Source: Verrucomicrobiia bacterium (GTDB taxonomy: Bacteria > Verrucomicrobiota > Verrucomicrobiia > Limisphaerales > UBA8199). From it: a stretch of DNA of 58,177 nucleotides. Location: the NCBI GenBank assembly GCA_035946615.1, contig DASYZB010000081.1:1-58177 (forward strand). Direction: 5' to 3'. The position numbers and the translations under genes were made by a program. The notes below the pieces were generated by a model. The model was not told the DNA's origin. It made no database searches and was given only the letters and a program-made list of their open reading frames with translations. Below, piece by piece: positions 21,719-58,177 of this stretch. Positions within the stretch are counted from its first letter, which is position 1. Every line of letters starts with the position of its first letter.

Positions 21719-22086
21719 AAAATTTACACGATAGAAAAAAATATTTCTTGAGAAGTTGCCGCTGGGTGTTAAGAGTAAGGGCATCGAGGCGCACGGAATG
21801 CAATGAAAACCGGGCGCAGGTTCTTTGGAAGCAGCAAGGTTGAATTTAGAATTTACCCTGCCTATGCGCGTGATTAGAAACTATGTCCTTGAACCGTAGT
21901 AAATAACTCAAGGGATCAGAGTCGTGGTTGTGGCCGACAGGCCTTGATTGGAAGTCGAAAGCATCCCGGCGGGTCCCACCTGTTTCTAATAAGTTCAAAG
22001 GAACTGTTACACACGGCAATGGCGGGGTTTTTTGTTTGCACAGGGTTTTGTTTGGGAAATAGGACGGCTCCTGTTATCTTTGCTTT
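21719..22086. other. Intergenic region, no gene seen
   Basis: About 370 bp before rarA. No supported gene, RNA or repeat was recognised. It probably contains the rarA promoter, but I could not pick convincing -35 and -10 boxes. Confidence 0.35.
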
Positions 22087-24343: not shown

Positions 24344-25306
24344 ATGGGACGATTGCGGCCCAATCGACGATTGGCAGGTCCATTTCGATTCTTGCCTCGT
24401 CAGCAAAATCTACGGGTCATATGCGCACGTGAATCCACCGTTGCGGGGTTGGCGGCCTGTGTTTTGCTCCTCGGCGGCGCTGTGAGAGCCCAGACAGACG
24501 CTAGTGCTACTAGTAGTGGCGAGGCGCGGCAAATGTACGAGCGCATGGTCAAGCGGATGGATGAGATTCGCGACTATTCGGTGGACGGTGAGGACCTTAT
24601 GCGGAGCGTGCGCTTCAGGCTCTTTCAGCGGACCGACCCTGACGGGTTCAAGGAGTCGGCTAGGGTCTTCGTTACGGACCAAATGAGGGTCTTCCTCAGT
24701 AACAGGCAGGGAAAGTGGCGGCTGAGACGGGACGCGGTGAAGGTGGAATTCGAGCGACCCGAGACGACAGTGATGCAGGAACCGGATTGGCTGGCGGAGC
24801 AGCACCCGGGCCAGGTTTTCTTTCGCCGCCTTGACGATGAGGACTTGCCCAGCGCGGGGCGCTGCCACCGAATCGAGGTCACACTTTCGGCGGGGTTGGT
24901 CGAAAGCTTGGCGAGACTCATCCGCGCAAAACGAGATGAGGCCGCCTCCAGCGAGCGGGCAAAAGGGTGGTTCGACCCGATCGAGTGGGTTGTCTCCCGA
25001 AGGATCCTGTTCATTGGAACAGCCGACCCGCTGAAGTACGGAGAGACCGACTACGATGGGTACGGCGACTTGCTCTCGCAGATGGTGTTCACTGGGTACG
25101 ACCTGAATTCATCTATTGGTAACGCGGTGTTCGAGGTGCCCGCGGGGCTGCCGGTATTCGTCGCGCACAACGCGTCCGACCTCGCAAGCCACGACCGGAA
25201 GGCCGGCAGGCAAGCCGCTTGGCTGGCTTGGTCCAACCTAGCCTTCAAAGTGTCGATCCTTAGTACAAACAAACTCCACGCCGGGACGGGGCAGCCGGCC
25301 AGATGA
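24344..25306 (+). CDS. Secreted protein of unknown function (LolA/DUF1571-like)
   Basis: First gene of a nine-gene rightward operon. Up to 320 residues from the ATG at 24344, but the hydrophobic signal ('VAGLAACVLLLGGAVRAQ') begins only near residue 34, so the true start may be an internal non-ATG codon. The mature protein has 'YERMVKRMDEIRDYSVDGE' (shortened), followed by strand-rich sequence ('MRVFLSNRQGKWRLRRDAVK', 'DGYGDLLSQMVFTGYDLN'). The pattern is like LolA or DUF1571 lipoprotein-sorting folds, which bind lipids. Function is not known; the family call is weak. Confidence 0.55.
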   Translation: MGRLRPNRRLAGPFRFLPRQQNLRVICARESTVAGLAACVLLLGGAVRAQTDASATSSGEARQMYERMVKRMDEIRDYSVDGEDLMRSVRFRLFQRTDPDGFKESARVFVTDQMRVFLSNRQGKWRLRRDAVKVEFERPETTVMQEPDWLAEQHPGQVFFRRLDDEDLPSAGRCHRIEVTLSAGLVESLARLIRAKRDEAASSERAKGWFDPIEWVVSRRILFIGTADPLKYGETDYDGYGDLLSQMVFTGYDLNSSIGNAVFEVPAGLPVFVAHNASDLASHDRKAGRQAAWLAWSNLAFKVSILSTNKLHAGTGQPAR

Positions 25307-25348
25307 GACTTTCGTGGAAGTTGCCTCAACAATGGAAAGAAAACGAGA

Positions 25349-25708
25349 ATGAAAATAACCTATGAGAAAGCGTTCGGAAATGTTCGGATCGTCGCAACCG
25401 CGGCCGCAGCGGTCGCATCGTTCCTGCCAACCGGGTGCGCCAACTCCAGCTCGGTGTCATTTAAGAGCTATATATCCAAAGCCAACTCCGCTTGCAGTGG
25501 TAGTAGCGGAGAAAACTATTGCGCATGCATGAAAAACCAGATGTCGGCCATGATATCCCAAGCGCAGGGGAAGGGATCGCTTACGACCTCCCAAGTAAGC
25601 AGCCTCGGGGCATCTAACAAGCAGGGATTCGACAAGTGCATGTCTGATGCATCCAATGGGGCCGACACTGGCCCGAGTGACTGGCCGGGATGGAGCAAAT
25701 TGTCATGA
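25349..25708 (+). CDS. Small Cys-rich lipoprotein
   Basis: A 119-residue protein with a signal peptide and lipobox 'LPTGC' (Cys30), so a likely outer- or inner-membrane lipoprotein. The mature part is Ser/Gln-rich and has four further Cys (one in 'SACSGSSGE', the pair in 'YCACMKN', and one in 'FDKCMSD'), which could form disulfides. I do not recognise a family. It follows the secreted protein by 42 bp and precedes the rhodanese by 13 bp. Confidence 0.6.
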   Translation: MKITYEKAFGNVRIVATAAAAVASFLPTGCANSSSVSFKSYISKANSACSGSSGENYCACMKNQMSAMISQAQGKGSLTTSQVSSLGASNKQGFDKCMSDASNGADTGPSDWPGWSKLS

Positions 25709-25721
25709 GGGAGGTGCGGGC

Positions 25722-26171
25722 ATGAGGCGCTCTCTCTTCCGGGTGGTCGGAGTGTGGCTTCTCCTGGCGGCGGGCGCCAGCCTATCGAGGCCTCCCGCGG
25801 AGTTTTGGCGGTCTTTTCGGCCAACGGAGCCGACTGCCGACGACGCGACGTTGAGCCAAGTTTTGATGTGCCGCCGCCAGCCGGGGACCCTGGTGGTTGA
25901 CACCCGTCAGGCCCGGTACTTTGCCGAGGGCCGCATCCCGGGCGCGGTAAACATGTCCATTTCGGAGTTGAACGCGGTCGTGACGAACAGACCCTCGGCG
26001 ATCAGCAAGGCCCGAGGTTTGCTGCTCTATGGTTCAGGCAGCGCAAGCGAAATCGAAGCGGCCCGGGAGATCGTCGTTCGGGCTGGCTTGGGGGAGAAGA
26101 CCGTCATCTTCGGGGGTGGTTGGCGCGAGTGGGTTGAGTGCGGTCTGCCGATCGAGAAAGACCAGGAATAG
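25722..26171 (+). CDS. Secreted rhodanese-like protein lacking catalytic Cys
   Basis: A 149-residue protein with an N-terminal hydrophobic signal or anchor ('VVGVWLLLAAGASLS') and a rhodanese domain. The fold is shown by 'VVDTRQARYFAEGRIPGAVN'. At the position of the catalytic Cys (usually 'xYCxSGxR') the sequence reads 'LLLYGSGSASEIEAA', with Gly in place of Cys. Sulfur transfer is therefore not expected; a binding or scaffold role is more likely. Start at 25722 has a good Shine-Dalgarno (GGGAGG). Three bases separate its stop from the next gene. Confidence 0.8.
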   Translation: MRRSLFRVVGVWLLLAAGASLSRPPAEFWRSFRPTEPTADDATLSQVLMCRRQPGTLVVDTRQARYFAEGRIPGAVNMSISELNAVVTNRPSAISKARGLLLYGSGSASEIEAAREIVVRAGLGEKTVIFGGGWREWVECGLPIEKDQE

Positions 26172-26174
26172 CCC

Positions 26175-26723
26175 ATGGAAACGGCCAGGGACATCGCCAC
26201 GCCGGAATGCAGCGAGCGCGAGATGGAGCCCACCATGCAGCGCGTGTGCGCGCGAGCTATGACGGCACTTGCGGCCGATTGCGCCTGGATGGCCCTGCGC
26301 CTTCTTTTAGCCGGGGGCTTGGAGATAGCCGGGATTGGGAAAATCGTTGCGCCCGCCGGCTTGGCTGCTTATCTCCAGGAGTTGGGCTGGCCCCCGGTGC
26401 TCTCGGGTGGGGTAGCCGCGCTTCTTCCCAGCTTCGAACTGACGTTGGGTATTTGCCTGATGGCCAGAATTGAGTTGGAGTTGGCGTCGGTGCTGACCTG
26501 GCTCCTCAGCGCAGGGTTTGTCGTCATGGCGCTCCTTGCGTTGTCCAAACCCACCGGCTTGGGCTGTCCATGCCTGCCGCAGATGAGCCCGGGCATCCTG
26601 AGCAGCGGTCTCGGCATGGTTTTCCGAAATCTCGTTCTGCTCCTGGCCGCTTCGCTGGCCGTATGGAAATGGGGGATTCGCGCCGCCGTCGGTGGGGCCG
26701 TCCCGGAAAAGTTATGGTCGTAG
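26175..26723 (+). CDS. MauE/DoxX-like membrane protein
   Basis: A 182-residue protein with four predicted transmembrane segments (about residues 38-60, 72-98, 103-120 and 146-168). A Cys pair ('GLGCPCLPQM') in a loop near residue 131 is like the MauE and DoxX-redox proteins that handle disulfides in the envelope. Its start is 3 bases after the rhodanese stop, and its end overlaps the next start by 10 bases. Probably works with the Cys-containing neighbours in envelope redox or maturation; this is an inference. Confidence 0.65.
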   Translation: METARDIATPECSEREMEPTMQRVCARAMTALAADCAWMALRLLLAGGLEIAGIGKIVAPAGLAAYLQELGWPPVLSGGVAALLPSFELTLGICLMARIELELASVLTWLLSAGFVVMALLALSKPTGLGCPCLPQMSPGILSSGLGMVFRNLVLLLAASLAVWKWGIRAAVGGAVPEKLWS

Positions 26724-27574
26724 CGCTCTCCAGATCCTCGCGCGAGGCGCCATCGGGGCGCAGGCTGGGGCCGGAGCATTGGCCATGCCCGCGCCCCTCC
26801 GGCTTTACCTTAATGGATCTGCTGGTTGTCATCGCAGTTATCGGCGCGCTCCTGGCTCTGTTTCTTCCCGCGGTGAACAGGGCGCATGAGAAAAGCAACC
26901 GTGTCGTCTGCGCAAATAACCTGCGGCAGCTTGCGGCCTCGACGCTCGCCTATGCAAACGACTCGTCCACCGGCAGGCTGACACCGGATCGGTACGAGAG
27001 GCGGTTCATCGACGCGGGCCCAGGCCAGAACTGGCTCTGGCGCTATATGACACACGGCTCGGGGTTGCCAAAGATGTTTTTCTGTCCAAGCACACGGCAG
27101 GGCCATCTCTTAAAACTACTCCACGATCCGGACGGTACCCTCTGGTATGGCGACCTGATGCGTTCGGCTGACGGACGCCTTGCGGTCCATGGTTGCAGTT
27201 ACGATACTATCCCGTTCTTCGCGGAGCTGGAGAATTATTGGAATGGCAACTCGAATGCGGAACGCAACTCCCGGGCCGTCCCTAAAACGCTGCCCACGAT
27301 CAACACCTACGCGCATGAGCACGAGGCCTTCGGCCTCAAAGGCCGAGTCCCCGGACCCAGCGCTGTTTGGATTTACGCTGATGCCAGCTCCTGGAATCCC
27401 TTCCAATTGTACCTTCCTGTTAGCGAAAGCAACCATGGCGCGGAAGGGCAAAACGTGGGGTTTTGTGATGGGCACGTCCAGTGGGTGGGCCGCGCGCAGG
27501 TGGTTTACAGCTACGAGCTGTCGCAGGACAACAATCGGACGAGGGCTTACCCAAGAGGCCACGGGCCTCGCTGA
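26714..27574 (+). CDS. Type IV pilin-like pseudopilin (DUF1559-like)
   Basis: A 286-residue protein with a prepilin N-terminus. The cleavage motif is 'SG|FTLMDLLVVIAVIGALLAL' (Gly30 before Phe31), followed by a single hydrophobic helix. The conserved Glu5 is replaced by Asp. The C-terminal part ends with 'VGFCDGHVQWVG', the pattern of DUF1559-like secreted pseudopilins common in planctomycetes and verrucomicrobia. Start at 26714 (ATG GTC) overlaps the MauE stop; the leader is long (30 residues) and basic. Probably a secreted pilin-like protein rather than a real pilus subunit. Likely processed by a prepilin peptidase encoded elsewhere. Confidence 0.75.
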   Translation: MVVALSRSSREAPSGRRLGPEHWPCPRPSGFTLMDLLVVIAVIGALLALFLPAVNRAHEKSNRVVCANNLRQLAASTLAYANDSSTGRLTPDRYERRFIDAGPGQNWLWRYMTHGSGLPKMFFCPSTRQGHLLKLLHDPDGTLWYGDLMRSADGRLAVHGCSYDTIPFFAELENYWNGNSNAERNSRAVPKTLPTINTYAHEHEAFGLKGRVPGPSAVWIYADASSWNPFQLYLPVSESNHGAEGQNVGFCDGHVQWVGRAQVVYSYELSQDNNRTRAYPRGHGPR

Positions 27575-27583
27575 TGCTTTTGC

Positions 27584-28399
27584 ATGAAACGCAAAGTCCT
27601 CAGCCACGCCGCGAAGTGCCTGGTCCTCGTCCCGGTGCATGAGCATATCGAGCCCGGCTGCGAGGACGGATTGAGGGAACTGGAGCGCCGCGGCTACACG
27701 GTTTGGCGCCGCTATGGCATGTCCGATATAGCTTTTGGGCGGTCCGGCCTGGCCAGCGAAGGGCTGTCGAGTGGCTTTGAAGAGCTCATGTGGATCGATT
27801 CCGACATCTTGTTCAACCCTGACGATCTCGAGAAGCTGCGCCGGCACAAACTCCCAATCGTTGGGGGAATCTACGCCAAAAAAGGCGATCGCGATATGGC
27901 TTGTGTGGCTCACCGAGGGTGCCCCGAAATAGTCTTTGGGGATGCTGGGGGGCCGATCGAGCTCAAATATATTGGCGCGGGCTTCCTGCTCACACGAAGG
28001 GTCGTTTACGAGAGGATTGACCGCGACCTGTTCAGCCGCGATCACCCCAAGCGCGCGCGTGGAGCGACGAGGATGGCGCCTTTTTTCTTCAACACAATCG
28101 AAGGGAGGCGGCCGGGAAGGCAGTACTTGAGCGAGGACTACTCGTTCTGCGCCTACGCGCGCAAGTGCGGATTTAAGATTATGGCTGATACAACGGTGCG
28201 TCTTGGTCACATTGGGCGCTACGTTTATTCGTGGGAGGAGCTCGGTGGCGCGCGCGAGCGGCGCAGCATAGTTCGGGTGAGGGTCGTTCCAAACGTCGGG
28301 AAACCGGTCCAATTGGTCCTCCCTCCAAACGTGGCGGCAAGGGCGAAGGTCCTGAATCAGCGTGGCCATCACGTGGGAGGTGGACTGCTTGGCCGCTGA
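27584..28399 (+). CDS. GT-A fold glycosyltransferase
   Basis: A 271-residue soluble protein. It has a DxD-type metal site in 'LMWIDSDILFNP' and a Gly-rich 'PIVGGIYAKKGD' segment, as in GT-A glycosyltransferases that use nucleotide sugars. A downstream 'YLSEDYSFCAYARKCGFKI' and a His in 'RLGHIGRY' are also typical. Donor and acceptor are unknown. It lies between the pseudopilin and a membrane mannosyltransferase, so it could help to glycosylate the pseudopilin. It starts 9 bases after the pseudopilin stop. Confidence 0.7.
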   Translation: MKRKVLSHAAKCLVLVPVHEHIEPGCEDGLRELERRGYTVWRRYGMSDIAFGRSGLASEGLSSGFEELMWIDSDILFNPDDLEKLRRHKLPIVGGIYAKKGDRDMACVAHRGCPEIVFGDAGGPIELKYIGAGFLLTRRVVYERIDRDLFSRDHPKRARGATRMAPFFFNTIEGRRPGRQYLSEDYSFCAYARKCGFKIMADTTVRLGHIGRYVYSWEELGGARERRSIVRVRVVPNVGKPVQLVLPPNVAARAKVLNQRGHHVGGGLLGR

Positions 28400-29663
28400 G
28401 ACCACACCTGTGCCGCCGTGGAAACGGGCGGAAACACCCGCCGTTACGTCAGCCCCCCGGGTGCCGTGGAGAGTCCTGTCGGCCATCTTAGCCTGGAAGG
28501 GCTTTTGGGCGGTCTTCACACTGCTGGTGATATTGCTGCCGGGCTTCAACGTTGCCGCCTTCAACCTCGCGCTGCAGAGATGGCCGCGCGATGCCGGGCC
28601 GGTTATCACAAGCCACCTCGCGACGTGGGACGCCGCCCATTACCTTTTTCTGAGCGAAGTGGGGTACGTGCCAGGAACCGCATCCTGCGCGTTCTATCCC
28701 CTGTGGCCAAACCTGATTCGCCTCGGCTCGAATGTCACCGGGGGCAACCACCTGATCTCGGGCCTGCTGCTGGCCAACGTCTTCTCTGCAGTCGCCGGCG
28801 TCCTGTTTTACCGGCTTGTTTCCAGCCAATTCGGGAACCGTGTAGCATGGCTGTCGCTGCTGCTGCTGCTGCTGTTTCCCGGGTCCCTGTTTTTCCAATT
28901 CATCTACAGCGAGTCGCTTTTTTTCCTCCTTCTTGTGGGACTTTGGACCGCCCTTTCGAGGCGGCAGGACCTTCCGGCTGCTGCCCTGGCCTTCCTTCTG
29001 CCCCTCACGCGCGGTGTCGGGATCTTCTCGGCCGTGCCACTTGCATGGTATGTCTTGGAGCCCGTGTGGAACAGATGCCAGGCTCTGGGCCGTGGTCTGC
29101 CCCTTCGAAGAAGGCTCACGGTTAGCCGAGCCGTTCTACTTCAATGGGCCGCCACCCCAAGGCTCGTGCTGCCAGCGGCTCTGCTGCTGTTGGCCCCTTT
29201 CCTGGGCTTCATGGTGTATTTAGGATTTATGGCCCTTTGCGCGGGGGGACCCCTCGAAGGCATCCGCGCTCAGCGATTCTGGGGAGTCCAGTCGGCGTGG
29301 AACTTAGTAAACGTCCCAGGCTTTGTCTGGTCGTTCTTCCATGTGCAAACCCTCCACGACTTTTCCGGATCGGGTCTCGATAGGGCGGTCTTTGTCTTTT
29401 TCCTGCTTTCGCTTCCCACCGTCTGGAGGCTGGGCAGAGGTCTTTCCGCGTGGGCCCTTGCGCTGGGCCTCCTCCCGGCAATGAGCGGCCATTTCGTGTC
29501 CTTCACCCGCTTCTGCGCTGTGGCGCTGCCGGTTTTTGTCGCGCTCGGCGTCTGGCTTGGCCATGCTTCTCGCAGACGCCTCCTTGCAGGCTATGCGATC
29601 GCCAGCCTCGCCATACAACTCGTGCTCGGATGGTGCTTCCTGAACTTCTACTGGGCTGGATAG
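28362..29663 (+). CDS. PIG-V-like membrane mannosyltransferase
   Basis: A 433-residue integral membrane protein with about ten hydrophobic segments. It matches the PIG-V (GPI mannosyltransferase II) type of bacterial GT-C protein. Shared features are an Asp-containing first loop 'TSHLATWDAAHYLFLSEVGY' (shortened), then 'CAFYPLWPNLIRL' and 'PLTRGVGIFS'. Such enzymes transfer mannose from a polyprenyl-phosphate donor outside the membrane. The frame overlaps the previous gene by 38 bases; a GTG near 28380 is another possible start. Confidence 0.8.
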   Translation: MAITWEVDCLAAETTPVPPWKRAETPAVTSAPRVPWRVLSAILAWKGFWAVFTLLVILLPGFNVAAFNLALQRWPRDAGPVITSHLATWDAAHYLFLSEVGYVPGTASCAFYPLWPNLIRLGSNVTGGNHLISGLLLANVFSAVAGVLFYRLVSSQFGNRVAWLSLLLLLLFPGSLFFQFIYSESLFFLLLVGLWTALSRRQDLPAAALAFLLPLTRGVGIFSAVPLAWYVLEPVWNRCQALGRGLPLRRRLTVSRAVLLQWAATPRLVLPAALLLLAPFLGFMVYLGFMALCAGGPLEGIRAQRFWGVQSAWNLVNVPGFVWSFFHVQTLHDFSGSGLDRAVFVFFLLSLPTVWRLGRGLSAWALALGLLPAMSGHFVSFTRFCAVALPVFVALGVWLGHASRRRLLAGYAIASLAIQLVLGWCFLNFYWAG

Positions 29664-29710
29664 CGGCGTTCCGAGCAATCGAAAAAGTTTGTTTCCGATA
29701 CGAGGACCTC

Positions 29711-30007
29711 ATGCAACACCATTTTGAAGTGCCGCCAGGATTCACCTGGGACAGTCCGGTTCCCATTGACCTTAGCAAGCGGTACGACGTTCACTTTTGG
29801 GAACCTGGGCCGCGATTGGTCGTTTACCGCAACGTGCTGTTCAGGGGTGCGGCCAGTCTTGCCACGCCCCTGGGGCGGGCTGGAGTAGGCCAGTTTGTCA
29901 AAGTCGAGCAGGAAGATGGTGGCGTTGTTTTCCTGGCGCGCCAGTCGATCATCAGAATTTGCGAAAACAGCCACGAAAGTAAGGGCGAGGATCTTCACCC
30001 AGATTAG
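29711..30007 (+). CDS. Small protein of unknown function
   Basis: A 98-residue soluble protein (mildly acidic), starting 47 bases after the mannosyltransferase stop and ending 5 bases before the sulfotransferase start. It contains 'SKRYDVHFWEPGPRLVVYRN' in a beta-rich pattern. I do not recognise a family. The tight spacing supports it being a real gene. The start may instead be a GTG or TTG a few codons upstream. Confidence 0.45.
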   Translation: MQHHFEVPPGFTWDSPVPIDLSKRYDVHFWEPGPRLVVYRNVLFRGAASLATPLGRAGVGQFVKVEQEDGGVVFLARQSIIRICENSHESKGEDLHPD

Positions 30008-30012
30008 CGACT

Positions 30013-30963
30013 ATGCGCCCTCCAGTTGAGCCTCCTACTTCGCAGGACCCTCCCCGCCGGGCACCCGAAACCGAGCGCGCGCATGCCGTCGCGTGCGTCT
30101 CGCGCAATGACAAGCATTTTTTAGCGGAGTTACGCGTGGATAACGGGAGCGGTGCTTCCGCGCTCGCGAGGGGTCGCCAGCCGATCTTTCTGATTGGCCA
30201 GCCACGGTCCGGCACGACCCTTCTGCAGAGGCTCATCAACTCCACTGGGAACGCCCTGCTCTGCGGCGAGCACCTTGGCCTGCTCAGAGGCGTGGCACAG
30301 TCATACATGGAGTTCTTCCACCACCCCAGGCTCAGGAGCCTGATACGGCACCAGAACCTTGGGGTGGCCAGGGCGGCTCGCGCCGTCCAGAAGCTTCGGG
30401 ACCCGAGGCTCTTCTCTGCTCTCGTGAATGGTCTAGATATGGAGTACGTTCTAGGCGTTTACCGTTGCTTCGTCCGCTCCGTGGGGAACCCGTGCAACGT
30501 ATGCACGCGGTGGGGTTTTAAGGAGATACTCTACTGCACAGGGCGCGACTTTGTGGTACCCATGCTGCGCGGCTTGTTTCCTGACGCGCAGTTCGTATTT
30601 ACGGTTCGCGAACCGTTAAAGCAGGTCAAAAGCGTAGTGCATGCGGGCTGGTGGCATCACACCGTGGAGCAGGCCGCGAATCTGTGGGTTGACCAAGCCC
30701 GAGCGATGCTGCAGTACTGCCACGAAATGCCAAAAAGCGCCATGCTGGTCCGCTACGAGGACCTGATCTGCCGCGATGAACTGGCAGTCAGGGAGCTTTT
30801 TGGGTGGCTCGGCCTGCCATTCGACGGCTACCAGCGCCGGATACTGTTCAAGGTGGGTAAGATCGGAGCCACGCCGAAACGCGGCAAGTTGCCCCCAGCC
30901 GTCCAGCGCACCATAGTGCAGCGCTGCCTCGGTCCAGAGAGCCGCGCGCTGTACGGGTACTGA
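30013..30963 (+). CDS. PAPS-dependent sulfotransferase
   Basis: A 316-residue sulfotransferase. The 5'-phosphosulfate loop is 'FLIGQPRSGTTLLQRLI' near residues 57-73. The 3'-phosphate site is in 'FVFTVREPLKQVKSVVHAGW' and is followed by 'MLVRYEDLI'. Likely transfers sulfate from PAPS to a sugar or protein acceptor. The N-terminal 50 residues are unconserved. Arginine AGG codons are frequent here compared with metH, consistent with a different origin for the operon. Last gene of the operon; it would fit sulfation of the glycan made by the two transferases upstream. Confidence 0.82.
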   Translation: MRPPVEPPTSQDPPRRAPETERAHAVACVSRNDKHFLAELRVDNGSGASALARGRQPIFLIGQPRSGTTLLQRLINSTGNALLCGEHLGLLRGVAQSYMEFFHHPRLRSLIRHQNLGVARAARAVQKLRDPRLFSALVNGLDMEYVLGVYRCFVRSVGNPCNVCTRWGFKEILYCTGRDFVVPMLRGLFPDAQFVFTVREPLKQVKSVVHAGWWHHTVEQAANLWVDQARAMLQYCHEMPKSAMLVRYEDLICRDELAVRELFGWLGLPFDGYQRRILFKVGKIGATPKRGKLPPAVQRTIVQRCLGPESRALYGY

Positions 30964-53955: not shown

Positions 53956-54552
53956 CTAGAGTGCCCAGCGGCGGTAGTGGGCGAGGGTTTGGGAGACATC
54001 GGGGAGGAGGGGGAGCAGTGAGAATTGTTTGTATTCAACGCCGGTGGGCCAGGAAACTTTAAGGCCGAGTTTTTCTTTGGTTTGGAACCAATAGATCACT
54101 TGTTCGACGGCGGCTTGTTCGAGGTCATCGGGGAGGCCTTGGCAGGCGGCCACCGGGGGATCGGGCGGCGGGGAGCCGGGGAGCAGGTAGCCGCCGGTGT
54201 AGGTGACGCGGGCGAGGGAAGGCTGAGGGCTAAGGGCTAAAGGCTGAAGGGAGATGATGCAGGCACGGCGGATGAGGTAATCGATGCCGGGCTGGTCGAG
54301 CCATCCTTCGGATTCGGAGGATTTGGTTTCGAATTTGGAGACGGATTCGATGGGGTAGCAGGGTGGGGAGAGTTCGGTGTCGGTGGGATCGAATTCGTGG
54401 GTGGCGTTCTCGGTGCGGGCGAGGGTGCGGTTGGTTTCGTGGTCGAAACGGGCGGAGACGGCCTTGAGGGCGTTGGTCAGGATGGCGTCTTGGCTGGTGT
54501 CGGAGTCGAGGATCGAGAGGCGCGATTTGACTGTGCTGAGTTGGGTGAGCAT
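53956..54552 (-). CDS. Phage head-tail connector (gp6-like)
   Basis: A 198-residue protein of the HK97 gp6-like connector type. The N-terminus 'LSTVKSRLSILDSDTSQDAI' and the following helical 'LTNALKAVSARFDHETNRTL' are characteristic, with 'GLPDDLEQAAVEQVIYWFQT' near the end. It follows the capsid gene in a leftward cluster. It is the last phage gene before the region turns back to bacterial sequence, so the usual head-closure and tail genes are missing. Identity is moderate. Confidence 0.7.
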   Translation of the reverse strand: MLTQLSTVKSRLSILDSDTSQDAILTNALKAVSARFDHETNRTLARTENATHEFDPTDTELSPPCYPIESVSKFETKSSESEGWLDQPGIDYLIRRACIISLQPLALSPQPSLARVTYTGGYLLPGSPPPDPPVAACQGLPDDLEQAAVEQVIYWFQTKEKLGLKVSWPTGVEYKQFSLLPLLPDVSQTLAHYRRWAL

Positions 54553-54776
54553 GACGTGTTTTAACGCAGAGAGGCGAAGACGCGAAGGCGCAGGGGCGGA
54601 GTTTTTAGAATTTCAGATTTGAGAGGACGGTGACTCGTGCCGCCCCCCCGACCAGAAAGGGGGGGCGGGAGCGAGTGGTGGGAGTGGAAGGACATCCAAA
54701 AGCGGCAGAGGGCTGCCGCAGTCCCAGACGCTGGCGCGGTGGGTGGGGCCGGAGGCATGCTGGGAGCGGGCAGGGA
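54553..54776. other. Non-coding gap in the phage cluster
   Basis: About 220 bp between connector and capsid genes, with copy 3 of dispersed repeat A (54698-54738) and a strong C/G tract. No gene was seen. The repeat's presence here marks the cluster as part of the host chromosome. Confidence 0.5.
54698..54738. repeat. Dispersed repeat A, copy 3
   Basis: 'AAAAGCGGCAGAGGGCTGCC' is followed by GCAGTCCCAGACGCTGGCGCG. It is the reverse orientation of the copies at 17184 and 23481. It also shares the downstream 'GGGCCGGAGG' with copy 4. Confidence 0.7.
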
Positions 54777-56033
54777 CTATGCTGCAGCGGCGGTGAGGAG
54801 TGCGGCGGTGGCGTCTTCGGCGCAGTAGTCGAAGTCAATTTCTTCGATGAAGCGGACGGCGAGCTGGTCGTTGCTGAACCAGATGTGGGTGGAGGTGTCG
54901 ATGCGCGGGGTGCCGTGCTCGCCCATCCACCAGAAGGAGAGGGCTCCGAAGACGGCGATGGTTTTGCCAGCAGCGGCGAGGGTGTCGAATGGTTGGAGGA
55001 CATCGGTCCAGACGATTGGATAGCCGTCGAGGATGGCGCTGCCGTCTGGGAGGCGCTGATAGATGTGGGGTTCGGCTTGGGTGTTAAAGGAGCCGAGGTG
55101 GGTTTCCCAGGTGGTATCCAGGTAGTAGGCCGAAAGGCGGCCATTGAGAGCGGCTTTGTTGACCTTGGTGCGGAGGAGGCGGAAGTCGTCGAGGGTGGCA
55201 TCGCTGGGTTTGGTCTTGCCGGCGGCCAGGGTGACGACATGGCCTTTATCCTTTGCGATTGTGGCGATGCCTTCGACGTTTTCGTAGGTTTCGGGGGTGC
55301 CGTCGGCGAGGAAGCCCCAGGTGTCTTCGGCCCTGGCGAATTCGACGGCGGCGTAGCGTGTGAGGAATCGGCCGATGGGGATGACAGCTTGCTCGTCGAT
55401 TTCGCGGGGGAGCCGGATTACGCCGCCGATCTTGTGGGATTCGAGTGAAGCTAGAGTGACGGTGGGCGATTTTTCGGCGAAGGCGGCTGAGATGGCGATG
55501 GAGCCGAACGCCGGCCTGGTCCCCATTCTGACTGGGCGACAGGTGCCGGTGCCGATTGGGTAGGGGGACATACGGCGGCGAACGACACCGAAGTCCGAGA
55601 TGAGTTCGCGGATTTCGTTGCCGTACTGAGCTGGGAGTGGGATATCGGTGGTGGTCAGGGCGGCTTTGGTTGAGAGGTTGAGGGTGTTGCGGGCGAAGTT
55701 GAGGAGGGTGTCGCGCTGGGTTGCCGGTGCGGAACAGAGGGCATCGATGGCGCCGCTGCGTTCGCAGTGGAGGATGAATTGGGAAGCGACTTGGGCGGCG
55801 CATTCGTCGGTGACGCCGCCGATGGGGCGGGTGCGATGTGGGGCTGCTGAGCCGAATTTGGCTACGGTGGCGGTCCGGAAGTTGCCTAGTTGCAGAGCAA
55901 GGTCAGCTTGGGCGGCCTGGAGTGTTGCCAGGGTGGATTTGAGGCCAAGCAGGGTACCGAGATCGGTTTTGATGGCGCCGAGGTCGGCGGTGAGGGTGGT
56001 GATTTGGTCGAGAGTTTGGGTTTCAGTTTGCAT
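54777..56033 (-). CDS. HK97-type major capsid protein
   Basis: A 418-residue major capsid protein. The N-terminal 50 residues are a coiled coil ('LDQITTLTADLGAIKTDLGT'-like), the delta/scaffold domain that the prohead protease removes. The capsid fold follows: 'RELISDFGVVRRRM' region, 'GGVIRLPREIDEQAVIPI' and 'FARAEDTWGFLADGT', then 'FNTQAEPHIYQRLPDGSAIL' and 'GYPIVWTDVLQP'. It lies between the protease gene (21 bases upstream) and the connector gene, the usual HK97 order. Confidence 0.9.
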   Translation of the reverse strand: MQTETQTLDQITTLTADLGAIKTDLGTLLGLKSTLATLQAAQADLALQLGNFRTATVAKFGSAAPHRTRPIGGVTDECAAQVASQFILHCERSGAIDALCSAPATQRDTLLNFARNTLNLSTKAALTTTDIPLPAQYGNEIRELISDFGVVRRRMSPYPIGTGTCRPVRMGTRPAFGSIAISAAFAEKSPTVTLASLESHKIGGVIRLPREIDEQAVIPIGRFLTRYAAVEFARAEDTWGFLADGTPETYENVEGIATIAKDKGHVVTLAAGKTKPSDATLDDFRLLRTKVNKAALNGRLSAYYLDTTWETHLGSFNTQAEPHIYQRLPDGSAILDGYPIVWTDVLQPFDTLAAAGKTIAVFGALSFWWMGEHGTPRIDTSTHIWFSNDQLAVRFIEEIDFDYCAEDATAALLTAAAA

Positions 56034-56054
56034 TTGGTTGTTGGATTTTTGTGA

Positions 56055-56726
56055 CTAGAGATGTTTGAGGAGATCGCGGATTTGGCGAGACAGGAGCAAA
56101 GCCGGGGAAGTGGGAATAATGGGAGGTATGGGAGATGTGGTTTTGGCGATGGCGAGGGATTGATGGAGGAGATCGAGGGTGGTTTGGATGTCGGATTTTT
56201 CGAGGGCGCCGGATTTGAGGGCGAGGGCCAGGGCGTTGGGGTTGGCGGGGATGGCGACGGCGGAAACTTCGACCAACTCTTGCTCGAGGTGTTTGCGGGG
56301 GGAGGTGGCGGTGGGGTCTTCCCAGCGGATGGGAATGAAGCCGACGGAGACACCGTGAAGAAAGCCGCCGGCGTACAGGGCGTGCGCGATCTTGGCCATG
56401 GGGTTGGCGTCGGTGGCGAATTGGATGCGCTGGAAGAGGACCTGGCGACCAGCGAGGGCGCGGACTTCGGTGATGAGGGCTTTGCCGAGGGTGAAGATGA
56501 CGTCGCCGTATTGGTGGGCGTTTTGGAAAACGGGGTTGCGGCGATAGGAGTCGAGGCGCCAGCCGGAGGGGGTGATGATTTCGCCGAAACGATCGAGGGT
56601 GGCATCAGAGGAGGTGAAGTCCAGGGTGGGATTTTGCGGATTTTTGATTTCAGATTTTTGATTTTCGATTGGATCGGTTTGGGGAGCATGGACTTCGACT
56701 TGGAGGGTGGAACGGAGGGGGAGCAT
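56055..56726 (-). CDS. HK97 prohead protease
   Basis: A 223-residue serine protease that matures the capsid. Its core shows 'DATLDRFGEIITPSGWRLDS', 'NPVFQNAHQYGDVIFTLGKA' (the His region) and 'GFLHGVSVGFIPIRWED' (the Ser region). The N-terminus contains 'IENQKSEIKNPQNPT', encoded by an in-frame copy of repeat F (56631-56671), so residues about 18-32 are not family sequence. The core motifs are unbroken. Confidence 0.82.
   Translation of the reverse strand: MLPLRSTLQVEVHAPQTDPIENQKSEIKNPQNPTLDFTSSDATLDRFGEIITPSGWRLDSYRRNPVFQNAHQYGDVIFTLGKALITEVRALAGRQVLFQRIQFATDANPMAKIAHALYAGGFLHGVSVGFIPIRWEDPTATSPRKHLEQELVEVSAVAIPANPNALALALKSGALEKSDIQTTLDLLHQSLAIAKTTSPIPPIIPTSPALLLSRQIRDLLKHL
56631..56671. 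repeat. Repeat F inside the prohead protease gene
   Basis: The plus strand reads 'GATTTTTGATTTTCGATT'-like units, the reverse complement of the string at 9039-9071. Here it sits in frame and codes for part of the protease N-terminus (EIKN/ENQKS). A second partial copy lies at 56728-56752, upstream of the protease start. Confidence 0.65.
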
Positions 56727-56969
56727 GGATTTTTGAAGTTTGATTTTCGATTGGGGAGAGGGCAGGGGGAGACACGAATTTCACGAATTAGCACGAATTT
56801 TTTCGGGGCTGAATAGGGTTGCATTTTGGGGAGAAAGCGGCAGAGGACTGCCGCAGTCCAAGACGCTGGCGCGCGGGACAGGGCCGGAGGTGTGGAGAGG
56901 AGGGCACATGGGATTTTGGGAATAGACGATGGGAAATAGCCGACAGCCGATAGCAGATGGCAGATGGGG
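56727..56969. other. Gap with repeats A, E and F
   Basis: About 240 bp between the protease and portal genes. It holds part of repeat F (56728-56752), repeat E (56771-56803) and repeat A copy 4 (56834-56874), stacked one after another. No gene was seen. Confidence 0.6.
56834..56874. repeat. Dispersed repeat A, copy 4
   Basis: 'AAAGCGGCAGAGGACTGCCG' is followed by CAGTCCAAGACGCTGGCGCGC. It closely matches copy 3 (54698-54738), with only a few changes. Confidence 0.7.
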
Positions 56970-58177
56970 TCAGAGGTTTTGGTTTTCGCCGGCTTTTTGG
57001 AGGGTGCGGGGAAGGAAGCCGGCGTTGCCCCAGGGGAGGGGTTTGAAGCCTAGATCGAGTACGCGATTGAGTTCGTTGAAGGGGATGCCCATGTCGAAAC
57101 CGGTTTTGGCGGTGATGAGGCGGGTGCGGCGGGCTTGCTGCATGATGGGGAGGCTGTCGATGTCGAACCAGCCGGTGGCGCTGGGGTCGATGGTTTTGAC
57201 GGTGATGTCCTCGGCGGCTTCGAGGCGGGTGCAGAGAGGGGCCACGCGGTTCTCGATGAAGTTCTGGCGGGAGCCGACCATAACATCGTATTTGGCGTTG
57301 TCGGTGATGGTGACGATTTCTTCTGGGACACCGAACGCCGCACAGATTTCGGCGCGAGAGAATTTGCGGTTTTCGAGGAATTGGAGGTCGGCGCTGGAGA
57401 GGGTGGGTTTTACTATTTCAGCGCCGCCCCAGAGGAGGAGAGGTTTGTCGGCGATACCGGCGCGGCGTTTGCGCTGGTTGAGATGGGCGAGGACTTGCTG
57501 CTGCTGGGTGTCAGTGAGTTGCTGTTCGGTGCGAATGATGACACCGAGGTCGGCATTGTTTTCCATGAGGCCCTTCATGAAGCTGGCTGCGGCGAAATCG
57601 GTCTGGGCGGGTAGGGTGGCGGCATAGAGTGGGGGCATGCCGCGCCAGAAGTCGAAAGGGTTGGGGAGTTTTTCGAACCAGACTTCCTCCGGAAGAAAGA
57701 TTTGGGACTCGATGGGGGCCTGGGGGCCGAGACCGGTGTAGCGCCAGCCGATGATGTCGTGGTTTTCGACGATGTGCTGGAACTGAGATGGGTCGAGGAT
57801 GAGAACATTTTTTAGTTTGGCGCCTGGGGCTTTGAAGGCGGCGGTGGCACCGTCCTGGAAGATGGGGATGCGGACGCACTCGCCGCGGAGCATGAGCCAG
57901 ATGATGCGGAGCTCCCAGTACTGGAAGCGGTCTATTTGGGGGTGTGGGTGGGAGTAGAAATCAACGCACTGGCATCCCACAAGCGACAAAATTCGAGCGT
58001 GAACCTTCGGTTTTCCGAAGGATCTGAAGAACCTACGGCGGGTCGACTTTAAGAATTTCAGCTCATTTTCCGCAACGGTAGAGATTGCGTTGGCTGGGTG
58101 CGTTTGGCTGTCCCACAGTTTCAGATGAAGCCGGGGAAAAACGCCTGTTCTGGCCGCCCCAGATATCTGAAGCTGCC
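56970..58177 (-). CDS. HK97-type phage portal protein (5' end outside window)
   Basis: The reading frame stays open from 56970 to the right edge, so the N-terminus is outside or near the edge. The clear portal similarity begins at about 57945: 'RFQYWELRIIWLMLRGE', then 'HDIIGWRYTG', 'PFDFWRGMPPL', 'GLMENNADLGVIIRTEQQLT', 'RRAGIADKPLLLWGG', 'FSRAEICAAFGVPEEIVTI' and 'NRVAPLCTRLEA'. The sequence before 57945 is not clearly portal-like, so the N-terminus may be damaged. First gene of the leftward head cluster, as in HK97 order (portal, protease, capsid). Confidence 0.85.
   Translation of the reverse strand, partial: QLQISGAARTGVFPRLHLKLWDSQTHPANAISTVAENELKFLKSTRRRFFRSFGKPKVHARILSLVGCQCVDFYSHPHPQIDRFQYWELRIIWLMLRGECVRIPIFQDGATAAFKAPGAKLKNVLILDPSQFQHIVENHDIIGWRYTGLGPQAPIESQIFLPEEVWFEKLPNPFDFWRGMPPLYAATLPAQTDFAAASFMKGLMENNADLGVIIRTEQQLTDTQQQQVLAHLNQRKRRAGIADKPLLLWGGAEIVKPTLSSADLQFLENRKFSRAEICAAFGVPEEIVTITDNAKYDVMVGSRQNFIENRVAPLCTRLEAAEDITVKTIDPSATGWFDIDSLPIMQQARRTRLITAKTGFDMGIPFNELNRVLDLGFKPLPWGNAGFLPRTLQKAGENQNL

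What the first reader, a model, noticed from the sequence alone, without database searches (positions are those of the whole stretch)
24344..30963. Nine-gene operon: secreted pseudopilin with envelope redox-like, glycosyl- and sulfotransferase genes
Nine genes run in one direction with gaps of 0-47 bases and two overlaps: secreted protein, Cys-rich lipoprotein, rhodanese fold without catalytic Cys, MauE/DoxX-like membrane protein, pseudopilin, GT-A glycosyltransferase, PIG-V-like mannosyltransferase, a small protein and a sulfotransferase. I know of no named system with this set. A plausible reading is a pseudopilin (or lipoprotein) that is exported, disulfide-handled, mannosylated and sulfated. 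Only the individual family calls are established; the joint role is inference.
Basis: partly seen in the sequence, partly recalled or inferred. Interest (0 to 1): 0.72.

Follow-up and report, generated by a model that had tools for sequence, protein, structure and literature searches.

The report
Pilin, redox and sugar-transfer gene cassette
A nine-gene bacterial operon turns out to be one version of a recurring but apparently undescribed gene set that pairs a pilin-like secretion protein and a small cysteine-bearing secreted protein with a membrane redox protein and sugar-attaching enzymes, and this one copy has also picked up a dead rhodanese and a sulfate-transferring enzyme.

Summary
In detail: nine same-strand coding ORFs (24344-30963), gaps 3-47 nt, two overlaps. 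The genome belongs to Limisphaerales (Verrucomicrobiota). The nine-gene set was seen only here, but its core recurs. G031 keeps g1, the small Cys protein and the pseudopilin as a trio. MauE and a pseudopilin lie close together, mostly with glycosyltransferases or small Cys proteins, in 13 of the genomes read, including six of seven cassette-type MauE genes here. Two genomes share a MauE-like/pseudopilin fusion. The rhodanese-MauE pair is a separate module (44 of 59 sampled MauE loci); of 47 rhodanese rows only the window's lacks the active-site Cys. So the window merges two modules, and g6, g8 and g9 look like local additions. Best reading: a cassette that exports, disulfide-bonds and glycosylates a small Cys protein and/or the pseudopilin itself. 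That function is inferred; no substrate was shown. Corrections: the lipoprotein call is weak, sulfation must precede export, and the dead rhodanese is a local loss. The papers listed in nine searches include none on the cassette. Confidence in the mechanism is 0.45.

The parts
24344..25306 (+). g1: secreted 320-aa protein, no named family; relative in G031, weak relatives in three other genomes
   Evidence: no family; (single sequence): 2 of 97 genomes, G031 at E 4.0e-10, 26% identity; (profile of window + G031, so both match by construction): three more of 320 genomes at E 7.5e-8 to 9.3e-5; AlphaFold failed (pLDDT 35)
25349..25708 (+). g2: small exported Cys protein (5 Cys, CxC), candidate cargo; lipobox doubtful
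   Evidence: 23% identity to the G031 protein at the same place between g1 and the pseudopilin, with C49, C58, C60 and C97 conserved; not matched by the leader profile of other cassette peptides
25722..26171 (+). g3: rhodanese fold with N-terminal hydrophobic stretch and no active-site Cys (YGSGS)
   Evidence: PF00581 36 bits; 46 of 47 rhodanese rows carry the Cys, the window is the exception
26175..26723 (+). g4: MauE/DoxX-type membrane protein with C-P-C motif
   Evidence: PF07291 50.3 bits; E57, F84, C100 and C102 (numbering of L040) invariant in 10 aligned MauE incl. window; sister of the rhodanese-paired clade on a long branch
26714..27574 (+). g5: H-X9-DG-type pseudopilin, C-terminal YSYELSQDNNR signature
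   Evidence: C66 conserved in 16 of 16 and C124 in 15 of 16 aligned pilins; N-terminal helix 33-83 in a low-confidence model
27584..28399 (+). g6: probable GT-A-type glycosyltransferase (family weak)
   Evidence: best hit Glyco_transf_21, 14.8 bits, below cut-off; 2 of 97 genomes incl. own at E<=1e-5; no PDB sequence match at E<=1
28362..29663 (+). g7: PIG-V-like GT-C membrane mannosyltransferase
   Evidence: PF04188 39.2 bits; 18 of 97 genomes at E<=0.001; 23 of 42 PIG-V ORFs have a same-strand pilin-motif ORF within 3 kb
29711..30007 (+). g8: 98-aa protein of unknown family
   Evidence: no family (longer ORF 29450-30007 scanned); coding-like codon use
30013..30963 (+). g9: PAPS-dependent sulfotransferase family, no signal sequence seen
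   Evidence: PF13469 77.1 bits; closest solved relatives are protein-tyrosine sulfotransferases, E 1.5e-7; no match at E<=1e-15 in the other 96 genomes searched

Best explanation
The operon is one member of a family of Limisphaerales envelope cassettes whose common core is MauE, an H-X9-DG pseudopilin, a small secreted Cys protein and glycosyltransferases. Most likely g1, g2 and g5 leave through Sec; g5 is cut by prepilin peptidase before FTLMD and built into a type II secretion or type IV pilus-like fibre by a general platform (the genome has six GspF-like proteins). MauE, with its conserved C-x-C, oxidises cysteines in g2 and the conserved C66/C124 pair of g5, with the dead rhodanese g3 as a non-catalytic partner. 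g7 (PIG-V) adds a lipid-carried hexose to the exported product on the periplasmic side. g6 and g9 are local additions that build or sulfate a cytoplasmic precursor before export. Shown: gene content, recurrence of the core, the fusion, loss of the rhodanese Cys. Inferred: substrates, direction of electron flow, secretion route, all modifications.
For: G031 keeps g1-g2-pseudopilin-pseudopilin. GT4-anchored sample (33 places, 20 of 320 genomes, 31 loci): MauE beside GT4 in 14 of 31 (two of them weak, L269 and L315); pilin in 11 of those 14 by profile (10 by motif) against 3 of 17 without MauE (Fisher 0.001 and 0.004). MauE sample (59 places): pilin 8 of 15 unpaired against 2 of 44 rhodanese-paired, p 1e-4; GT4 6 of 15 against 0 of 44; without one place added out of score order (G000:C158) 7 of 14, p 3e-4. 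Own genome: 7 MauE genes match the cassette profile, three of them its seeds; 6 of 7 have a same-strand pilin within 4 kb. MauE-like/pseudopilin fusion in G060 and G069, nearly identical loci, so perhaps one event; g1-like/thioredoxin fusion in G222. PIG-V/pilin adjacency 23 of 42, never on the opposite strand only. C66 in 16 of 16 and C124 in 15 of 16 pilins. Six GspF-like proteins, 12 domain hits.
Against: No genome read repeats the nine-gene set; the G031 trio has no MauE between or beside it. g2 is not shown to be homologous to the Cys peptides of the other cassettes. The window MauE is divergent (best identity 30%, branch 3.79) and is drawn as sister of the rhodanese-paired clade (96/87), not inside a cassette clade, although its nearest row by path is a cassette MauE. 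The link of Cys proteins with unpaired MauE is weak in the fair sample (5 of 15 against 3 of 44, p 0.02), and the Cys-protein detector makes false calls. The fused MauE-like domain has lost its C-x-C. The g1-like relation in G060, G069 and G222 is weak. Outside the order 16 MauE loci showed no pilin. No substrate or modification was observed.
Confidence: 0.45

Rival explanations
1. The pseudopilin and glycosyltransferases make or export a surface polysaccharide, as in the cyanobacterial hps locus, and the redox genes only fold the exported proteins.
For: Pseudopilins and glycosyltransferase-type genes recur together, with GtrA- and ArnT-like membrane genes (my labels, no family scan) in many PIG-V loci. 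The hps locus combines pseudopilins and glycosyltransferases (PMC4284469, passages). A cassette GT4 has a weak HpsP hit (E 0.1).
Against: No Hps family model is hit by the nine window proteins at E<=0.1. Small Cys proteins and MauE are not part of the hps passages that I read. No polymerase or flippase family was hit in the window operon.
Confidence: 0.25
2. A secreted disulfide-rich glycopeptide (bacteriocin- or signal-like) system: g2 is the product, MauE and the glycosyltransferases are its maturation enzymes, and the pseudopilin is part of its exit route.
For: In related cassettes most of 14 peptides share a leader (MNKLKKLFxPST-like), have 7-11 Cys and sometimes tandem copies. MauE homologues occur in candidate RiPP families, and MauE has been speculated to form disulfides (PMC7794033, passages).
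Against: Window g2 lacks that leader and has only 5 Cys. No transporter, peptidase or immunity family was hit in the window operon. No PADLOC family at E<=0.001.
Confidence: 0.15
3. Loose neighbourhood: a rhodanese-MauE pair, a pseudopilin and some glycosyl/sulfotransferase genes happen to share an operon without a joint product.
For: g6 and g9 are rare or absent in 96 relatives at the cut-offs used. The rhodanese-MauE pair is an independent module. Candidate pseudopilins are numerous in these genomes (first-look candidates mostly 25-130 per genome).
Against: Core associations exceed internal controls; fusion proteins; strand bias of PIG-V/pilin pairs; tight overlaps in the operon.
Confidence: 0.15

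Closest known systems
Cyanobacterial hps (hormogonium polysaccharide) locus
   Same: Pseudopilins encoded together with glycosyltransferases (PMC4284469, passages).
   Different: The window adds MauE, a rhodanese fold, a small Cys protein and a sulfotransferase; no Hps family model matches the window proteins.
Rhodanese-MauE gene pair of Verrucomicrobiota (seen here; no name known to me)
   Same: g3 and g4 are adjacent and in the same order; the tree draws window MauE as sister of the paired clade with 96/87 support, on a long branch.
   Different: The paired rhodaneses have a YCxxxxC-type motif (most often YCxGGxC); the window has none there. 42 of 44 sampled pairs have no same-strand pilin within 3 kb.
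MauE-containing candidate RiPP families of Streptomyces (decRiPPter)
   Same: MauE homologue beside a small peptide gene (PMC7794033, passages).
   Different: No pseudopilin is mentioned in the passages I read; no comparison of the peptides was made.
Verru_Chthon cassette pseudopilins (TIGR02596)
   Same: Verrucomicrobial pseudopilin with a similar N-terminal stretch.
   Different: 21 bits against a cut-off of 70, N-terminal stretch only: not a member.
Protein-tyrosine sulfotransferases (TPST)
   Same: Closest solved relatives of g9; the PAPS-loop region and a C-terminal stretch align.
   Different: Only two local stretches align; no substrate known; g9 shows no signal sequence or membrane anchor by eye.

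Membership tests
MauE (PF07291) | score over Pfam cut-off | tested here: met
   50.3 bits against 27
MauE (PF07291) | C-x-C motif kept | tested here: met
   both Cys invariant in 10 aligned cassette MauE including window
Active rhodanese | rhodanese domain | tested here: met
   PF00581 36 bits against 22.2
Active rhodanese | active-site cysteine | tested here: not met
   Gly at the Cys column; 46 of 47 aligned rows have Cys
H-X9-DG / type IV-like pseudopilin | N-methylation motif and HX9DG models over cut-off | tested here: inconclusive
   N_methyl 14.9 against 21.2, TIGR04294 17.7 against 19, TIGR02532 14.3 against 16.3, but 45-46% identity to G031 pseudopilins
PIG-V mannosyltransferase (PF04188) | score over Pfam cut-off | tested here: met
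   39.2 against 22.4 bits
PIG-V mannosyltransferase (PF04188) | transfers mannose | not testable with these tools
   needs biochemistry
PAPS sulfotransferase (PF13469) | family score and 5' P-loop | tested here: met
   77.1 against 27 bits; PRSGTT loop aligns with TPST1
Protein-tyrosine sulfotransferase | tyrosine as acceptor | not testable with these tools
   nearest PDB match only (E 1.5e-7)
Rhodanese-MauE pair | rhodanese immediately upstream of MauE, same strand | tested here: met
   3 nt between g3 and g4
Rhodanese-MauE pair | double-Cys rhodanese motif | tested here: not met
   45 of 47 rows have both Cys; the window has neither
hps locus | Hps family proteins | tested here: not met
   no Hps model among NCBIfam hits of the nine proteins at E<=0.1
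Verru_Chthon cassette | TIGR02596 over cut-off | tested here: not met
   21 against 70 bits
Leader family of Limisphaerales Cys-rich peptides | shared leader | tested here: not met
   g2 best domain 0.2 bits with the leader profile
Bacterial lipoprotein | lipobox [LVI][ASTVI][GAS]C (recalled) | tested here: inconclusive
   g2 reads LPTGC, with Pro at -3; read by eye from the sequence, no predictor run

The most novel reading that the evidence does not exclude
A previously unnamed class of envelope system in Limisphaerales in which a dedicated pseudopilin and a MauE oxidase form one unit (sometimes one polypeptide) that exports and disulfide-bonds a small Cys protein while partner glycosyltransferases, and here a sulfotransferase, decorate it; some genomes carry several divergent copies with different cargo, as in a diversified family of secreted glyco-peptides or pilus-tip effectors.
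Probability: 0.3. Interest if true: 0.8.

Novelty: new variant of a known kind. Interest (0 to 1): 0.6.

Why it matters
These genomes carry dozens of candidate pseudopilin genes whose job is unknown to me. A recurring link between such pilins, a MauE-type membrane redox protein, small Cys proteins and sugar transferases gives a concrete handle on what a subset of them does, and makes it testable by deleting MauE or the pilin and looking at the secreted Cys protein. The MauE-like/pseudopilin fusion would tie redox folding to pilus-like secretion. The window copy also shows how two modules (rhodanese-MauE and the pilin cassette) can merge, with the rhodanese losing its chemistry.

Tried and rejected
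Phage origin: distant blastn of the whole operon against 50,697 phage records gave no match. Defence system: no PADLOC family for any of the nine proteins at E<=0.001. Structured RNA: only a tRNA and a 6S RNA in the window, none in the operon. Promoter/terminator scan: one promoter-like site, outside the operon, and 10 terminator-like sites against a shuffle mean of 7.6.

Structure: g1 with a two-row alignment failed (pLDDT 35). g5 with 16 rows gave pLDDT 57 with a pilin-like N-terminal helix and no PDB match at E<=0.001. g1 as a LolA-like fold: only 3bk5 at E 0.12 from two rows, not repeated with four rows, so not claimed. g2 as a member of the Cys-peptide leader family: rejected. Window MauE as a member of the cassette MauE clades: not supported by the tree, which itself is unsure because of long branches.

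Controls and dropped rows: the first MauE table (71 rows = 70 of the places listed plus the window) mixed in loci fetched because they lay near PIG-V or pilin genes, so I recomputed with the 59 places. Those follow the score order except that G000:C158 was added and G070:C199 left out; without C158 the pilin contrast is 7 of 14 against 2 of 44. The weaker places were not examined, apart from six looked at. In one search many 'cys' labels are out-of-frame ORFs; the 14 peptides used were picked by eye. In the GT4 sample the pilin counts are 10 of 14 by motif and 11 of 14 by profile, and two of the 14 MauE (L269, L315) are weak; leaving these two out of the MauE group gives 10 of 12 against 4 of 19 (recounted). 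Of the 23 PIG-V ORFs with a pilin one (L162) may be spurious. Outside Limisphaerales 16 of the MauE matches were read: 0 with pilin or these glycosyltransferases, 5 with rhodanese. The E-value of 1.5e-163 for the G031 g1 relative is by construction (it is in the profile) and is not used as evidence; one search gives 4.0e-10. The relative of g6 in G006 and the neighbourhoods of looser g9 relatives were not looked at.

Papers: nine searches listed no paper on the cassette in the rows shown; only passages of PMC4284469 and PMC7794033 were read, all others as listing or abstract start. Most subscription journals are not in that library.
Full report
What is there. The window lies in a 5.6 Mb, 161-contig draft genome. 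Its order mate G031 has contigs of the same lengths as records titled 'Limisphaerales bacterium' (L220, L229), and most titled loci are Verrucomicrobiota, so I take the order to be Limisphaerales. Nine same-strand ORFs fill 24344-30963 between a 5-formyl-THF cyclo-ligase-like gene and metH (product names recalled from the sequences, no call), with gaps of 3-47 nt and two overlaps. All nine have codon use favouring the annotated frame, g2 only narrowly. Pfam confirms rhodanese, MauE, PIG-V and Sulfotransfer_3; the pseudopilin is just under the curated cut-offs; g1, g2 and g8 have no family and g6 none above cut-off.

The core recurs. A profile of the pseudopilin C-terminus (A4, five seeds) hits 121 of 320 order genomes at E<=1e-12, with the seeds ahead of the rest. 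In G031 two of the seeds are tandem pseudopilins (45-46% identical to g5) preceded by a 115-aa protein with four of the g2 Cys positions conserved and by a g1 relative (E 4.0e-10 and 26% identity as a single-sequence match). So g1-g2-pseudopilin is a conserved trio, without rhodanese or MauE there. In G004 a small 10-Cys secreted protein, a ~300-aa protein, a MauE, a GT4-type glycosyltransferase, a second protein that looks like a glycosyltransferase, a pseudopilin with the same C-terminal signature and a PIG-V follow one another. The labels: GT4 is Pfam Glycos_transf_1; the second, which I call GTA2, has no Pfam hit and is my reading. In G132 MauE, PIG-V and a pseudopilin with the same signature lie within 6.5 kb.

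A general cassette. Searching for one cassette GT4 instead of MauE or pilin gave 33 places in 20 of 320 genomes, 31 loci. MauE is beside it in 14 loci, two of them weak (L269, L315). A same-strand pilin lies within 4.5 kb in 11 of these 14 by profile (10 by motif) against 3 of 17 loci without MauE (p 0.001 and 0.004). Fourteen small Cys-rich secreted peptides picked by eye from 12 of these loci mostly share a leader and a CC-containing core; window g2 does not carry this leader. Adding the MauE-anchored loci, MauE and pilin lie together in 13 genomes (G000, G004, G018, G024, G025, G031, G052, G058, G065, G092, G141, G301, G307; the MauE of G052 is weak). PIG-V genes show a related link: 23 of 42 PIG-V ORFs have a same-strand pilin-motif ORF within 3 kb and none only on the opposite strand. 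In the window's own genome seven MauE genes match the cassette profile, three of them being its seeds; six have a same-strand pilin within 4 kb. Two genomes, nearly identical at this locus, encode one 454-aa protein with a MauE-like membrane part (36% identity, E 1e-15 to the neighbouring MauE, but without its cysteines) followed by a pseudopilin. A g1-like domain is fused to a thioredoxin domain in G222 (the g1 relation is E 7.5e-8).

A second module. In 44 of the 59 MauE places a rhodanese lies just upstream, and only 2 of these 44 have a pilin nearby, against 8 of 15 without rhodanese (p 1e-4). In the alignment of 47 rhodanese rows from MauE loci (one of them, L093 11697, not MauE-adjacent) 46 carry the active-site Cys and 45 also a second Cys five residues on; only the window lacks both. 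The own genome has a regular pair elsewhere (C108). Five of 16 MauE loci read outside the order are also rhodanese-paired, and none has a pilin. The window MauE is drawn as sister of the paired clade, on a long branch, while its nearest row by path length is a cassette MauE. I read the window as a merger: a rhodanese-MauE pair inside a g1-g2-pseudopilin operon, with the rhodanese chemistry lost and the MauE C-x-C kept.

Local additions. g9 has no match at the strict cut of E<=1e-15 in 96 other genomes, and g6 has one at E<=1e-5. g9 is closest among solved structures to protein-tyrosine sulfotransferase. It shows no signal sequence by eye, so it would act in the cytoplasm before export.

Mechanism. 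The pseudopilins have two strongly conserved cysteines (C66 in 16 of 16, C124 in 15 of 16 aligned), and g2 has five; either or both can be substrates of MauE. Platform proteins exist: 12 GspF domain hits in six proteins. MauE has been speculated to form disulfides and appears in candidate peptide-modification clusters of Streptomyces (PMC7794033, passages). Pseudopilins with glycosyltransferases are known from the hps locus (PMC4284469, passages). From these I infer an export-and-maturation cassette; the substrate, order of steps and product are not shown. The main rivals are a polysaccharide export role, a secreted glycopeptide, and a loose neighbourhood.

Against this reading. The complete set was seen once. 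g2 is not demonstrably kin to the other cassette peptides. The Cys-protein detector is noisy and its association is modest in the fair sample (5 of 15 against 3 of 44, p 0.02). The window MauE is not placed among cassette MauE genes. Structure prediction did not help. Outside Limisphaerales the MauE-pilin link was not seen in the 16 loci read.

Noticed in passing
L040 5237-11278 (own genome, contig C105): A second cassette in the same genome: a ~300-aa anchored protein, MauE, two similar pseudopilins each followed by a similar 10-Cys secreted peptide, then GT4 and a second glycosyltransferase-like protein.
   Followed up: partly
L279 11233-12594; L280 6878-8239: MauE-like membrane domain, weak zinc-ribbon-like stretch and pseudopilin in one 454-aa ORF.
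   Followed up: partly
L281 7259-8506: g1-like domain fused to a thioredoxin domain with WCVWC motif.
   Followed up: partly
L041 5958-7287 and 43 other loci: Rhodanese-MauE pair in Verrucomicrobiota with a YCxxxxC-type rhodanese; function unknown to me.
   Followed up: partly
L292 2361-3283 and 7191-8998: Two Cys-protein plus MauE pairs on one contig.
   Followed up: no
window 21852-22032: 6S RNA (RF00013, 69.9 bits) just upstream of a rarA-like gene and a 5-formyl-THF cyclo-ligase-like gene, reminiscent of the ssrS-ygfA arrangement of E. coli (gene names and arrangement recalled).
   Followed up: no
window 54001-58000: Strong GC skew (0.36-0.38) in the last 4 kb, unlike the rest of the window.
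   Followed up: no
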